Shown here: piece after piece, positions 13,483-55,835 of the stretch
How the letters are laid out: each line of letters opens with the position of its first letter
Numbering within the stretch: the first letter of the stretch is position 1
Assembly: GCF_028416635.1 (NCBI RefSeq)
Contig: NZ_CP114013.1
Span: 4,278,001 to 4,342,000, forward strand
DNA length: 64,000 nt
From: Baekduia alba
GTDB taxonomy: Bacteria; Actinomycetota; Thermoleophilia; Solirubrobacterales; Solirubrobacteraceae
Direction of reading: 5' to 3'
Position numbers and translations under genes: made by a program
The notes under the pieces: generated by a model
Database searches by the model: none
What the model was told of the DNA's origin: nothing
The model's input: only the letters and a program-made list of their open reading frames with translations

Positions 13483-13540
13483 GTCGTTCCTGGGCGCCTT
13501 CTAGGCCTCCATGGCGCCGACGGAGGCGGCGGTGTGCTCG

Positions 13541-13673
13541 GGCACGTCGCAGATCGCGCGCACTATCCAGCCGACTGGCCGACGGACGCCCCGGCGGGCA
13601 CGTCGCAGATCGCGCCGCGCTATCCAGCCGACTGGCCGACGGACGCCCCGGCGGGCACGTCGCAGATCGCGCC
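13541..13673. repeat. Tandem repeat of 56-57 bp over the 3' end of the CBS-domain gene
   Basis: GGCACGTCGCAGATCGCG begins at 13541, 13597 and 13654; two full units plus a partial third. Read on the minus strand, the first unit is the last 18 codons of the CBS gene (AICDVP...), ending in the TAG at 13620. The two further copies are out of frame behind the stop. The farthest copy continues into AICDVPEHTAASVGAMEA and a TAG at 13501, which looks like the original gene end. Confidence 0.85.
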
Positions 13674-14045
13674 GTCGTCGGTCCAGCAGCGCACCACGTC
13701 GCGGACCGACAGGATCCCGCGGATCTCGCCGGCATCGGTCACGATCAGGTGGCGGAAGCCGCCGCGCACCATCGCCGCGGCCGCCTCTTCCAGCGACCAC
13801 TCCGGCGAGGCGAAGACGACCTCCTGGGTCAGGTGGTCGCCGACCAGCTCGGCGTCGACGTCCTGGCCCTTGCCGATCGCGTCGAGCACGTCGCGCTCGG
13901 TCAGGATCCCCGGTCCCATGGCATCCGGGTCCAACACGACCGCCGCGCCGACGTGCCGATCGGACATCGCCTTGGCGGCGGCTCGAAGGGTGTGGCCGGG
14001 GCCCACGGTGAGGACCATGCTGCTCATGCCGTCACGCACCTGCAT
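13620..14045 (-). CDS. CBS-domain pair protein with repeat-altered C-terminus
   Basis: 141 residues: two CBS motifs (about 8-60 and 68-124), with GPGILTERDVLDAIGKG and IRGILSVRDVVRCW, the typical GxxT/SxxD nucleotide-binding ends. Such stand-alone Bateman modules bind adenine nucleotides and report energy state; the target is unknown. AAGGAG stands about 10 nt before the ATG, so this gene, unlike many here, has a Shine-Dalgarno and a 5' leader. The last residues GASVGQSAG arise from a tandem duplication of the gene end (13541-13673); the presumed original tail EHTAASVGAMEA is now untranslated. It is divergent from an AraC-type regulator across a gap with twin TTGCAA sites. Confidence 0.85.
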   Translation of the reverse strand: MQVRDGMSSMVLTVGPGHTLRAAAKAMSDRHVGAAVVLDPDAMGPGILTERDVLDAIGKGQDVDAELVGDHLTQEVVFASPEWSLEEAAAAMVRGGFRHLIVTDAGEIRGILSVRDVVRCWTDDGAICDVPAGASVGQSAG

Positions 14046-32894: not shown

Positions 32895-33016
32895 GCCGGC
32901 GCGTCTGCGCCCCGGATCGTCGTGGCTGACGCCGCCGGGCGAGCGCCGGCGGGCGCCAGCCCGTCAAGCCGGTCGGTGGCGTCAGGCGCGACGAGGCGGA
33001 GCGCAGACGCGCCGGC
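32895..33016. repeat. Structured inverted-repeat element, copy B
   Basis: GCCGGCGCGTCTGCGC (32895-32910) and its exact complement (33001-33016) form 16-bp arms touching the glmS stop. The inner stem TCGTCGTGGCTGACGCC pairs with GGCGTCAGGCGCGACGA with one U-G and one mismatch; the centre holds GGGCGAGCGCCGGCGGGC and CCGTCAAGCCGGTCGGT. It separates glmS from acpS, so here it is between genes of the same direction. Confidence 0.82.
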
Positions 33017-34911
33017 TATTCGACGGTGACGGTTTTGGCGAGATTGCGCGGCTGGTCCACGTTGAGGCCGCGTAGGCGCGCGATCTTGTAGGCCAGCACC
33101 TGCAGCGGGATGACGGCCAGCAGCGGCTGCAGCATCCAGTCCATCGCCGGGATCCGGATGACCTCCTCGGCGTGCTCCCCGATCTCGATGTTGCCCTCCG
33201 AGGCCACCGCGATGACGTGGGCGCCGCGGGCGCGAACCTCCTGGACGTTGGACACCACCTTGTCGAGGATCGGCGAGTCGGTCGCGATGCACACGACCGG
33301 CGTCGACTCGTCCAGCAGGGCGATCGGGCCGTGCTTCATCTCGCCGGCCGCGTAGGCGTCGGTCGGGATGTAGGAGATCTCCTTGAGCTTCAGCGCGCCC
33401 TCCAGGGCGACCGGCAGCCCGACGTGGCGACCCAAGTACAGGAAGAACTCACGCGAGTAGTGGCGCTGGGCGACCTCGTCGAGGTCCAGCCCCGCCAGCA
33501 GCGCGTCGATCTCGTGCGGGACGCGCTTGAGCTCGGACACCAGGCGCGTGCGGTCCTCGACGGCGAGCGTTCCGCGCAGCTCACCCAGGCGCAGGCCCAA
33601 CATGTACATGACGGCGACCTGGCAGACGAAGGTCTTGGTCGCCGCGACGCCGATCTCCAGCCCCGCGCGGGTGAACAGGACGCCGTCGCTGTCGCGCGTG
33701 GCCTGCGACCCCATCACGTTGGTGATCGCGACGACGCGCGCGCCGCGGTCGCGGGCCAGGCGCATCGCGGCCAGCGTGTCGGCGGTCTCGCCCGACTGCG
33801 TGATGCCGATCACCAGGTCGCCGGGCCCGACCACCGGGTTGCGGTAGCGGTACTCGGAGGCGACGTCCATCTCGACCGGGATCCGCGCCCACTCCTCGAT
33901 CGCGTAGCGGCCGATCAGGCCCGCGTGGTACGAGGTGCCGCAGGCGACGATGATGATGCGGTTGACGTCCTTGAGCAGCTCCTCGTCGAACGAGGCCTCC
34001 TCGGCGAGGTCGACGCCGTCGGCGCGCACCGTGCGGTCGGCGATCGTCTCGGCGATCGCGTCGGCCTGCTCGTGGATCTCCTTCAACATGAAGGTCTCGA
34101 AGCCGCCCTTCTCGGCGGTCTCCTCGTCCCAGTCGATCTCCACGACCTCGCGCTCGAGCTCGTCGCCCGCGGGCGTCAGGAACGTCGTGCCGTCCGGCGT
34201 GATGACGACCAGCTCGCCGTTCTCGATGTACTGGACCTTGCGCGTGTAGGCCAGGAAGGCCGGGATCGCGGAGGCCAGGAACGTCTCGCCCTCGCCGCGG
34301 CCCACGATCAGCGGGCACTCGCGGCGGGCGCCGACCAGGACGTCGGGTTCGTCCAGCGTCATCGCGACGAACGCGAAGTGGCCCTCGAGCTCGGCGTACG
34401 CGGCGCGCACGGCGTCGATCAGCGGGGTGGGTGGGGACGAGTTCTGGTGATGGGACACGAGGTGCGCGATGACCTCGGCGTCGGTCTCGCTCGTGAAGCG
34501 CGCGCCCATGTCGGCGAGCCTGTGCTTCAGGGCCAGGTAGTTCTCGACGATGCCGTTGACCACCACGTGCACGCGGTTGGTCGTGTCGAAGTGCGGGTGG
34601 GCGTTGGACTCGTTGACGCGCCCGTGCGTCGCCCAGCGCGTGTGGCCGATGCCCGTGGTGGGTGGGTGGGCCGTCATCGTCGCGACCGCGACGCCGCCGT
34701 CGGCCGCATCGGCCTCCGGTAGCGGGAGCGCGTCGATGGCCGCCTGCAGGTTGGCCAGGTTGCCGACGGCACGGACCGACTCGATAGCGCCCTCGGACGC
34801 GATGACGGAGATACCGGCGGAGTCGTAGCCGCGGTACTCGAGCTTCTGGAGGCCGGCGAGGAGGATCTCCTGGGCGGGCCGCTGGCCGACGTAGCCGACG
34901 ATGCCACACAT
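33016..34911 (-). CDS. glmS: Glutamine--fructose-6-phosphate aminotransferase (isomerizing)
   Basis: 631 residues. The N-terminal amidotransferase starts MCGIVGYVG with Cys2 as nucleophile, followed by YRGYDSAGISV and HTRWATHGRVNESNAHPH; two SIS domains follow with CGTSYHAGLIGRYAIEEWARIPVEMDVASEYRYR and ESTPVVCIATDS, ending NLAKTVTVE. It makes glucosamine 6-phosphate, the first step to UDP-GlcNAc; GlmM, the next enzyme, is encoded just upstream. TATCCT (minus, 34920-34925) is 8 nt before the ATG, so glmS has its own leaderless start. No ribozyme-like leader is visible. Confidence 0.97.
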   Translation of the reverse strand: MCGIVGYVGQRPAQEILLAGLQKLEYRGYDSAGISVIASEGAIESVRAVGNLANLQAAIDALPLPEADAADGGVAVATMTAHPPTTGIGHTRWATHGRVNESNAHPHFDTTNRVHVVVNGIVENYLALKHRLADMGARFTSETDAEVIAHLVSHHQNSSPPTPLIDAVRAAYAELEGHFAFVAMTLDEPDVLVGARRECPLIVGRGEGETFLASAIPAFLAYTRKVQYIENGELVVITPDGTTFLTPAGDELEREVVEIDWDEETAEKGGFETFMLKEIHEQADAIAETIADRTVRADGVDLAEEASFDEELLKDVNRIIIVACGTSYHAGLIGRYAIEEWARIPVEMDVASEYRYRNPVVGPGDLVIGITQSGETADTLAAMRLARDRGARVVAITNVMGSQATRDSDGVLFTRAGLEIGVAATKTFVCQVAVMYMLGLRLGELRGTLAVEDRTRLVSELKRVPHEIDALLAGLDLDEVAQRHYSREFFLYLGRHVGLPVALEGALKLKEISYIPTDAYAAGEMKHGPIALLDESTPVVCIATDSPILDKVVSNVQEVRARGAHVIAVASEGNIEIGEHAEEVIRIPAMDWMLQPLLAVIPLQVLAYKIARLRGLNVDQPRNLAKTVTVE

Positions 34912-35002
34912 AGCCCTTCAGGATACCGAGCACTCCATACGCCACCCTGGCCTTCAGGGCAGGCTCCGCCAGCCCGATCAAGCGGTCGCGGAGGTCTCCC
35001 GG

Positions 35003-35254
35003 ACGACCTCCACGAGGCGCGCGGCGACTGCGTCACGTCGTCGCCGAAGTGGCGACCACGACCTCCACGAGGCGCGCGGCGACTGCGTCACGTCGTCGCC
35101 GAAGTGGCGACCACGACCTCCACGAGGCGCGCGGCGACTGCGTCACGTCGTCGCCGAAGTGGCGACCACGACCTCCACGAGGCGCGCGGCGACTGCGTCA
35201 CGTCGTCGCCGAAGTGGCGACCACGACCTCCACGAGGCGCGCGGCGACTGCGTC
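35003..35254. repeat. Five-copy 55-bp tandem repeat at the 3' end of glmM
   Basis: ACGACCTCCACGAGGCGCGC begins at 35003, 35058, 35113, 35168 and 35223, period exactly 55. The copies are almost identical. The copy at 35223 codes for DAVAARLVEVV of GlmM; the next unit supplies the altered end VATSATT and the TGA at 35198. The copy farthest from the gene runs into RETSATA and a TGA near 34980, apparently the old C-terminus. Each unit holds GTCGCC-GAAGT-GGCGAC, a 6-bp stem. This repeat fills most of the glmM-glmS gap. Confidence 0.9.
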
Positions 35255-36532
35255 GGTCTCCTCGTGAGACGGCGCCTCGACCATGACGCGCACCAGCTGC
35301 TCGGTCCCGGACGGGCGCACGAGCACGCGGCCGCGGCCCTCCAGCGCCTCGCTCTCGCGCTCGATCGCGGCGGCCAGCCGGTCGCTGTGCATCGCCGCGT
35401 CGCGGTCGGCGACCGGGACGTTGACGAGCCGCTGCGGGATCTTCTTCATGCCCGCGCGCTGGGCCAGGTCGCCGCCGCGCAGCGCCTCGAGCGTCAGCAG
35501 CGCGGACGCGATCCCGTCGCCCGAGGGCACGAACCCCATGTCGATGATGTGGCCGGACTGCTCGCCGCCCAACGACCAGCCGCGCGTGCGCAGCTCCTCG
35601 AGGACGTAGCGGTCGCCGACCGACGTGATCGCGACCTCGACGCCCGCCTCGCGCATGCCGACGTGGAAGCCGTAGTTGGACATCACGGTCACCGCGACGC
35701 CGCCCTTGAGCCGGCCGCTCTCGCGCAGCGACAAGGCCGCGAGCGCGATCAGCTCGTCGCCGTCGACGACGACGCCGTCGCGGTCGACGGCCAGGACGCG
35801 GTCGCCGTCGCCGTCGAACCCGAAGCCGAGGTCGTGGCCGCCGGCGGTGATCGCGGCGATCAGCGCGTCGAGGTGCGTCGAGCCGCACGCGGCGTTGATG
35901 TTGCGGCCGTCGGGCTCGTCGGCCATGACCGTCACGCGCGCGCCGAGGCGGCGGAAGATCTCCGGCGCCGCCTGATAGGTCGCGCCGTTGGCGCAGTCCA
36001 GCACGACGTCGACGCCGGTCAGGTCCAGGTCGCCGAAACGCGTCTGAAGCTCGCGCAGGTAGTCCTCGAGCGTGCCGTGCAGGACGCGGACGCGGCCGAT
36101 CGCGGTGCCGCCCGCGCCGTTGGCGGACGCGGCGTCTTCGTCCAGGCGCGCCTCGATCGCGGCCTCGGCCTCGTCGGAGAGCTTGAAGCCGTCCGGGCCG
36201 AAGAACTTGATGCCGTTGTCGGCGTACGGGTTGTGCGACGCCGAGATGACCGCGGCGAGGTCGAAGCCGTAGCGGCCGATGAGGAGCGGCGCGGCCGGGG
36301 TCGGCAGCACGCCGCCCAGCAGCACGTCGCCGCCGGCGGACGCGATCCCGGCCGCGAGCGCGGACTCCAGCATCTCGCCGGACTCGCGCGTGTCGCGGAT
36401 GACGAGCACCTGCGGGCGCTCGGCGGGCGACTGGGCCGTGACGGCACGACCCAGCCGCAGGGCGAGGTCCGCGGTGAGGACCTCGCCGGCGACGCCGCGG
36501 ACGCCGTCGGTTCCGAAGAGCCGGCGGGCCAT
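35198..36532 (-). CDS. glmM: Phosphoglucosamine mutase
   Basis: 444 residues. N-terminal RLFGTDGVRGVAGE, the active-site phosphoserine in VISASHNPYADNGIKFFG (Ser99), the metal loop GFDGDGDRVLAVD and the phosphate-binding RPSGTEQLVRVMVEAP near the end are all intact. It converts GlcN-6-P to GlcN-1-P. The last seven residues (VATSATT) are encoded by a tandem repeat unit; the presumed original end RETSATA lies about 220 bp downstream. This change is beyond the conserved fold and probably harmless. The ATG lies 8 nt after the rpsI stop. Confidence 0.97.
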   Translation of the reverse strand: MARRLFGTDGVRGVAGEVLTADLALRLGRAVTAQSPAERPQVLVIRDTRESGEMLESALAAGIASAGGDVLLGGVLPTPAAPLLIGRYGFDLAAVISASHNPYADNGIKFFGPDGFKLSDEAEAAIEARLDEDAASANGAGGTAIGRVRVLHGTLEDYLRELQTRFGDLDLTGVDVVLDCANGATYQAAPEIFRRLGARVTVMADEPDGRNINAACGSTHLDALIAAITAGGHDLGFGFDGDGDRVLAVDRDGVVVDGDELIALAALSLRESGRLKGGVAVTVMSNYGFHVGMREAGVEVAITSVGDRYVLEELRTRGWSLGGEQSGHIIDMGFVPSGDGIASALLTLEALRGGDLAQRAGMKKIPQRLVNVPVADRDAAMHSDRLAAAIERESEALEGRGRVLVRPSGTEQLVRVMVEAPSHEETDAVAARLVEVVVATSATT

Positions 36533-55654: not shown

Positions 55655-55835
55655 CGGCGGTGTCTGGGACGCCCGCCACCAGCTGAACGAAGGGCGCCGG
55701 CGCTAGGGTCCTGGCGGTGTCTGGGACGCGCGCCGCGAGCTGAACGAAGGGCGCCGGCGCTAGGGTCCTGGCGGTGTCTGGGACGCGCGCCGCGAGCTGA
55801 ACGAAGGGCGCCGGCGCTAGGGTCCTGCGCGTGTC
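55655..55835 (+). repeat. 57-bp tandem repeat carrying promoter and start codon of nadB
   Basis: GTGTC(T/C) occurs at 55660, 55717, 55774 and 55831, exactly 57 apart; the last is the nadB start. TAGGGT occurs at 55704, 55761 and 55818, each 7-8 nt before the following GTG. The units are nearly identical (the first differs in its CGCCC...ACC part). Each extra GTG opens a short frame such as VSGTRAAS then TGA. So nadB has three in-tandem copies of a leaderless promoter-start module. Confidence 0.88.

What the first reader, a model, noticed from the sequence alone, without database searches (positions are those of the whole stretch)
35003..35254. VNTR-like 55-bp repeat rewrites the C-terminus of glmM and displaces the ancestral tail
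Five near-identical 55-bp copies start inside the last codons of glmM. Since 55 is not a multiple of three, the new stop TGA is created in the second copy, giving VATSATT. The farthest copy leads into RETSATA and TGA, the likely original end. Copy number would not change the protein any further, so the array can vary freely in the glmM-glmS gap, with possible effect on mRNA coupling of the two amino-sugar genes.
Basis: partly seen in the sequence, partly recalled or inferred. Interest (0 to 1): 0.62.

Follow-up and report, generated by a model that had tools for sequence, protein, structure and literature searches.

The report
Tandem repeat extending a gene's end
A perfect 55-base repeat has been copied in tandem over the stop codon of a cell-wall gene in a soil actinobacterium, giving the protein a new last few residues and pushing the probable old ending downstream; it is one of several similar arrays on gene ends in this genome and resembles the typing repeats of the tuberculosis bacterium.

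Summary
In detail: 4.58 perfect 55-bp copies (35003-35254) begin 18 codons before the glmM stop; TGA sits on the copy 1/copy 2 junction (tail VATSATT) and the last partial copy runs into RETSATA. The reading is partly right. For RETSATA as the displaced old end: removing 220 bp leaves a 66-bp glmM-glmS gap, the sister species' exact gap; at a second array of the same layout (L185) the far tail matches one congener's gene end at 95%, the near tail 76% (a second congener does not separate them). GlmM tails do not decide: 0 of 93 relatives end in either. mRNA coupling is not supported: glmS has its own -10-like hexamer and the array RNA folds like shuffles. The array is not alone: 24 strong arrays in 2.06 Mb of this genome, 12 with 53-59-bp units, 14 on a gene end. 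At five of them near and far tails differ mostly by synonymous codons, so the near tail looks like a diverged gene end, not a decayed copy. Most likely a neutral VNTR, a kind known from M. tuberculosis; the recoded tails are unexplained. Copy-number variation could not be observed.

The parts
35198..36532 (-). glmM, phosphoglucosamine mutase, 444 aa, ends ...VVVATSATT
   Evidence: NCBIfam TIGR01455 489.7 bits, cut-off 447.55
35003..35254 (-). 55-bp tandem array, 4.58 perfect copies
35200..35254 (-). copy 1: last 18 sense codons of glmM and the T of TGA (32-bp U part + 23-bp S part)
35198..35200 (-). present glmM stop TGA across the copy 1/copy 2 junction
35035..35199 (-). copies 2-4; all but the GA of the stop untranslated
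35003..35034 (-). partial copy 5 (32-bp U part only)
34978..35002 (-). displaced, probably original glmM tail (RETSATA, TGA 34980-34978)
34920..34925 (-). -10-like hexamer TATCCT, 8 nt before the glmS ATG; sister L006 has TACCGT at the same distance
33016..34911 (-). glmS, isomerising glutamine-fructose-6-phosphate transaminase
   Evidence: NF001484 784.5 bits, TIGR01135 755.8 bits, both over cut-off
13539..13674 (-). similar array: 57 bp x 2.4 over the stop of a 141-aa ORF (CBS-domain label recalled); near tail AGASVGQSAG, far tail EHTAASVGAMEA
   Evidence: no NCBIfam hit
55656..55835 (+). similar array: 57 bp x 3.2 upstream of and into the start of a nadB-like gene; each of three full units carries TAGGGT and a GTG
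   Evidence: L-aspartate oxidase models best but below their cut-offs

Best explanation
It is a minisatellite-type tandem repeat (VNTR class) seated on the 3' end of glmM. Steps: (1) glmM once ended in RETSATA, 66 bp before glmS (inferred). (2) A second, codon-diverged version of the gene's last 55 bp (tail VATSATT, stop included) came to lie in front of the old end; how is not shown, and illegitimate recombination with a diverged homologous gene end is my preferred guess. (3) Slippage or unequal recombination between the identical 32-bp parts multiplied and homogenised the unit to 4.58 copies (inferred from 100% identity). (4) Because the stop sits on the first junction, further copies are untranslated and tolerated (direct from the sequence). 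The GlmM tail varies in length and sequence among relatives, so the change is probably neutral for the enzyme; glmS keeps a promoter-like site of its own between array and start codon.
For: Perfect array and reading frames. Collapsed gap 66 bp = sister gap 66 bp; the collapsed version aligns to the sister with 159 identical of 212 aligned positions, score 93, the actual sequence with score 64. Tails after the RLVxxV motif, placed in 83 of 94 distinct ends (own included), run from 3 to 19 residues; two readings of 2 are misplaced motifs. Similar arrays recur: 24 in 2.062 Mb, 12 with 53-59-bp units. 14 of 24 touch a gene start or stop against 4.7 at random placement (0 of 2000 trials as many); 4 of 24 lie inside genes against 17.2, all four with periods divisible by three. 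L185: far copy 95% over 40 nt (64.4 bits) to the G001 gene end, near copy 76% over 63 nt (47.3 bits). Near and far tails at five loci differ by 14 synonymous and 8 other codons; random change gives 5 synonymous on average, and 1 of 20,000 trials and 0 of 5,000 reach 14.
Against: No strain-level data, so 'variable number' is not shown. For glmM alone the tail comparison is equivocal: the sister ends VVVAEAAV and shares GTGGTCGCC with the near tail, and near and far tails are about equally close to 93 relatives. At L185, congener G006 does not separate the tails: far 87% over 52 nt, 61.7 bits; near 82% over 66 nt, 66.2 bits. The 13620-14045 gene did not help: homology to congeners ends at or near the end of the U part in three of the five that hold the gene, and runs on into the near tail in two (G002, G001). 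The source of the near-tail sequence was not found. In the codon test glmM alone gives P 0.038, L253 and L272 give no signal (P 1.0 and 0.38), and the five loci were picked by eye.
Confidence: 0.7

Rival explanations
1. VATSATT is the long-standing glmM tail and the partial copy with RETSATA is the intruder (an imported or decayed end).
For: The nearest relative G006 shares VVVA and 9 identical nucleotides at the start of the tail; over all 93 relatives the near tail is closer in 41, the far tail in 35.
Against: RETSATA is contiguous with downstream DNA that aligns to the sister and gives the sister's exact gap of 66 bp. Of six congeners four are closer to the far tail (far/near identities of 30: 18/16, 17/13, 21/20, 13/12) and two to the near tail (16/18, 13/14). 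At L185 the far tail is the one that matches G001.
Confidence: 0.15
2. The array is regulatory: copy number tunes glmS (or glmM) expression, as promoter tandem repeats do in M. tuberculosis.
For: It ends 77 bp upstream of the glmS -10-like hexamer. Published precedents: repeat length goes with fpg1 mRNA (PMC2734929, passages) and lpdA repeat number with lpdA expression (PMC12817950, passages). The nadB-side array in the same window repeats a -10-like site and a start codon.
Against: The E. coli-type consensus scan finds no promoter- or terminator-like site in 34850-35400 (it also misses the glmS hexamer, so it is weak evidence); no excess RNA structure (z 0.20 for 34960-35260, -0.25 and -0.12 for single units); the glmS hexamer lies outside the unit.
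Confidence: 0.15
3. Assembly artefact (false tandem expansion, or a join of two strain haplotypes).
For: Near and far tails look like two alleles; no reads could be examined.
Against: The genome is one 5.86-Mb contig; the compared units are locus-specific, periods differ from locus to locus, and the four in-gene arrays keep period 3n, which real selection explains and an assembler does not.
Confidence: 0.07
4. Scar of an integrative element that replaced the gene's 3' end (attachment core = U, element tail = S, old tail = R), as recalled for elements in icd or guaA.
For: Identical core, new tail with partly synonymous codons, displaced old tail.
Against: Nothing but the repeat lies between the copies; the 12 units of 53-59 bp share no clear common sequence.
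Confidence: 0.03

Closest known systems
M. tuberculosis VNTR/ETR minisatellites and promoter tandem repeats (VNTR3239/ETR-F between rnc and fpg1; 57-bp dop; 54-56-bp cysG; lpdA)
   Same: Locus-specific units, several in the mid-fifties of bases, in a GC-rich actinobacterium, between or across neighbouring genes; the gap is enlarged relative to array-free relatives (279-358 bp against 1-54 bp at rnc-fpg1; PMC2734929, passages). The nadB-side array here looks like the promoter-repeat type.
   Different: Here the glmM unit covers the gene's 3' end and stop and supplies a new tail; the displaced tail is codon-diverged; copy-number change is not shown; another class of actinobacteria.
MIRU (mycobacterial interspersed repetitive units)
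   Same: 40-100-bp repeats scattered over the genome, some in tandem (PMC2734929, passages)
   Different: MIRUs are one related sequence family (recalled); the units here show no clear kinship
Homology-facilitated illegitimate recombination
   Same: One homologous and one illegitimate joint (PMC3240628, start of abstract in a search listing) could place a diverged gene end before the resident one
   Different: No donor found; nothing here shows that it happens in this lineage; a guess only

Membership tests
VNTR (minisatellite-type tandem repeat locus) | head-to-tail array of near-identical units | tested here: met
   55 bp x 4.6, 100%
VNTR (minisatellite-type tandem repeat locus) | copy number varies between strains | not testable with these tools
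   one genome per species; the six congeners have no array at the glmM end
MIRU | units at different loci belong to one sequence family | tested here: inconclusive
   66 pairs of the twelve 53-59-bp units, mean score 18.0 against 15.9 for shuffles, best 28 against a 99% point of 26 and a maximum of 33; the shuffles keep base composition only, so the slight excess proves no kinship
MIRU | 40-100-bp units between genes | tested here: met
   55 bp, from the end of glmM into the glmM-glmS gap
Promoter tandem repeat | each unit carries a promoter of the downstream gene | tested here: inconclusive
   one search finds no promoter-like site in 34850-35400 but knows only the E. coli type; the glmS hexamer lies 77 bp outside the array
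Intrinsic terminator repeat | stable hairpin plus T-run in each unit | tested here: not met
   folding no better than shuffles, no terminator-like site

The most novel reading that the evidence does not exclude
This genome has a recurrent process that places a codon-diverged but peptide-conserving version of a gene's last (or first) ~55 bp in front of the resident gene end and then amplifies it in tandem, leaving the ancestral end behind as a fossil: a natural replacement of gene ends that leaves a readable record at each locus.
Probability: 0.25. Interest if true: 0.7.

Novelty: new variant of a known kind. Interest (0 to 1): 0.42.

Why it matters
Tandem repeats of this size are best known from M. 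tuberculosis as typing markers (PMC2734929, passages, calls their function not well understood). Here the arrays keep both the new and the displaced gene end, so the founding step can be read. If the codon-diverged tails hold up, at least some arrays began with a second, diverged gene end and not with a simple duplication, which sequencing of sister strains can test. For GlmM itself the consequence is small.

Tried and rejected
Source of the near tail: searched with up to 3 mismatches in the own genome and in 146 family genomes; only the array itself. RNA structure of the array: no excess. A transfer of the whole glmM: its body is no more diverged from the sister than its neighbours (same-amino-acid codons that differ: glmM 0.195, glmS 0.199, and, with gene names recalled, nnrD 0.237, rplM 0.178, rpsI 0.167); the last 52 aligned codons are higher (0.33), too few to build on. 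Deciding the glmM tail by relatives: equivocal. The 13620-14045 gene: not decisive.

A genome-specific burst of 53-59-bp arrays: I first thought so and withdraw it. The 1.2 Mb of own stretches not chosen beside known arrays hold 1 such array, 0.8 Mb of three congeners hold 0; the other 11 of the 12 come from the window (3), its neighbourhood (2) and (6), whose stretches I chose next to arrays already seen.

The displaced-tail scan (1858 own genes) shows an excess only at the top: at score >=60, 4 real against 0 permuted; at lower scores real and permuted are nearly alike (>=50: 5 against 3); G001 and G005 each have one real hit at >=60, G006 none real and one permuted. Of the 11 arrays that touch a stop codon, five went into the codon test; 13539 and L263 were left out (tails of unequal length), L125:2672, L179, L268 and L272:13280 were not examined for a far tail. 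A control duplication at the glmM end of L051 differs by 0 synonymous and 4 other codons, as expected of a decaying copy. The period excess (12 of 24 in 53-59 bp; P 2.7e-8 if periods 15-110 were equally likely) uses a range chosen after seeing it.

Full report
WHAT IS THERE. On the minus strand, glmM (36532-35198) is followed by glmS (34911-33016); NCBIfam equivalog models confirm both. Bases 35254-35003 are four identical 55-bp units and the first 32 bp of a fifth. I call those 32 bp U (GACGCAG...GGTCGT) and the remaining 23 bp S. Copy 1 is the last 18 sense codons of glmM and the T of its stop; TGA (35200-35198) is formed by the last base of copy 1 and the first two of copy 2. The fifth U runs into a different tail, R, which reads RETSATA and TGA in the glmM frame. 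So one or more extra units give VATSATT; none gives RETSATA. The genome is a single contig of 5,863,246 bases; its named relatives are mostly Solirubrobacterales such as Conexibacter and Solirubrobacter.

WHICH TAIL IS OLD. R is contiguous with downstream DNA that aligns with the sister G006. Without the four extra units the distance from glmM stop to glmS ATG is 66 bp, the same as in G006; with them it is 286 bp, the largest of the 74 of 94 distinct loci (own included) in which glmS follows glmM within 400 bp (9-286 bp). The tails themselves do not decide: 0 of 93 other GlmM ends is VATSATT or RETSATA; G006 ends VVVAEAAV, L036 ends LGTSAPA. Of 30 terminal bases the near tail is nearer to 41 relatives, the far tail to 35, with 17 ties; among six congeners it is two against four. 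Tails after the RLVxxV motif run from 3 to 19 residues (placed in 83 of 94 ends; two readings of 2 are misplaced motifs), so I expect no effect on the enzyme.

IT IS ONE OF A SET. The window has two more strong arrays, both with 57-bp units: 13674-13539 covers the stop of a short gene, 55656-55835 runs into the start of a nadB-like gene. In 2.062 Mb of the own genome (35%), TRF with at least 90% match and score 100 finds 24 arrays (a second row for the L185 array dropped); 12 have units of 53-59 bp. The sample is not random: 11 of those 12 are in the window, its neighbourhood and stretches chosen beside arrays already found; 1.2 Mb of other own stretches hold one, 0.8 Mb of three congeners none. 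I therefore claim no difference between this genome and its relatives, only that such arrays exist here in number and look clustered. 14 of 24 touch a gene start or stop (11 a stop, 3 a start; 4.7 expected, 0 of 2000 random placements as many), as do 8 of the 12 with 53-59 bp (2.9 expected, P 0.003); four arrays lie inside genes, all with period 3n. Selection against frameshifts is enough to explain this placement. Gene calls are my own codon-score calls.

THE CURIOUS PART. At five arrays over a stop codon the near tail (in the gene) and the far tail (next to native DNA) can be compared codon by codon: glmM VVVATSATT/VVRETSATA, L185 AQVAGAAVTWRDRL/APVASAAVTWRDRL, L198 GKVVLVP/GKVVLVP, L253 TLADILS/RLADILA, L272 ARLDG/TRLDG. 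Of 22 differing codons 14 are synonymous; random change of the same size gives 5 (1 of 20,000 trials reaches 14; 0 of 5,000; without glmM P 0.0008, without L198 0.0028, without L185 0.0022). Singly: glmM 0.038, L185 0.013, L198 0.0096, L253 1.0, L272 0.38. A simple tandem duplication followed by decay of the untranslated copy would not do this; a control duplication in L051 shows 0 synonymous and 4 other changes. At L185 the far copy matches the gene end of congener G001 at 95% over 40 nt and ends at its stop (gene placed), the near copy 76% over 63 nt; in G006 the two are not separated, 87% over 52 nt (61.7 bits) and 82% over 66 nt (66.2 bits). L185's units alternate between two haplotypes. 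I infer that the far tail was translated until recently and that the near tail came in already diverged. The five were picked by eye from arrays whose far copy has an in-frame stop, which favours peptide-conserving pairs; a blind genome-wide count is needed. A 5' counterpart may exist at apt (L256; TIGR01090 over cut-off), where VDIGSFV stands upstream of units reading VDLNNFV.

FUNCTION. glmS has TATCCT 8 nt before its ATG, as G006 has TACCGT at the same place; such a hexamer stands 4-12 nt before the start in 40 of 74 loci (own included) against 1 of 74 in a control interval. The own site is also one of the 4 of 74 that have an SD-like AAGG besides. The array ends 77 bp upstream of the hexamer. 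The E. coli-type scan finds no promoter- or terminator-like site within 34850-35400, and does not see the glmS hexamer either. The array RNA folds like its shuffles (z 0.20 for 34960-35260; single units -0.25 and -0.12). The coupling idea therefore has no support beyond analogy; transcripts were not examined.

AGAINST WHAT IS KNOWN. In M. tuberculosis and its near kin the rnc-fpg1 gap holds repeats with 55- and 79-bp units, is 279-358 bp long against 1-54 bp in other mycobacteria, and its length goes with fpg1 mRNA (PMC2734929, passages read). A 57-bp dop and a 54-56-bp cysG promoter repeat vary in copy number, and lpdA repeat number changes its expression (PMC12817950, passages read). The glmM array is the same kind of thing on a gene's 3' end. 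My searches of the paper library showed no title or abstract start about arrays with codon-diverged displaced gene ends or tandem repeats in Solirubrobacterales; they list only the best rows (for example 15 of 127, 10 of 23) of one open-access library, so this is no proof of absence from print.

Noticed in passing
window 13539-13674: 57-bp array over the stop of a short minus-strand gene; near tail AGASVGQSAG, far tail EHTAASVGAMEA, both followed by TAG.
   Followed up: partly
window 55656-55835: 57-bp array upstream of a nadB-like gene; each full unit repeats a TAGGGT hexamer and a GTG, so it may be a promoter tandem repeat.
   Followed up: partly
glmS upstream regions of 74 loci, e.g. L006, L044, L082: glmS starts fall into two kinds: 40 of 74 have a -10-like hexamer 4-12 nt before the start, 36 an SD-like site, only 4 both and 2 neither; this looks like repeated switching between leaderless and leadered glmS.
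   Followed up: partly
L051 around and after position 1735; L106: Independent short duplications of the glmM end across the stop in other Solirubrobacterales (offsets 62 and 30).
   Followed up: partly
L185 9800-9900, minus strand: The far gene end there forms a long hairpin with the stop codon at its loop (z -4.49 for the 101-base stretch); the array lies between the gene body and this hairpin.
   Followed up: no
G000:C1:336745-338049: A second GlmM-like match, 59% identical to this GlmM;'s table of 61 genomes no other genome has a second copy above about 34%.
   Followed up: no
L125 2672-2824 and 8620-8839: Two arrays 6 kb apart (78 and 107 bp) share a GACGGGCTGGCGCCC segment.
   Followed up: no
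L240 17307-17423: A 54-bp (18-codon) in-frame array inside an acyl-CoA-dehydrogenase-like gene (name recalled).
   Followed up: no
L042, L050, L113 (titled Bifidobacterium breve), L095 (titled Chlamydiae bacterium): Public records whose GlmM is 64-76% identical to this Solirubrobacterales GlmM; the titles look mislabelled.
   Followed up: no
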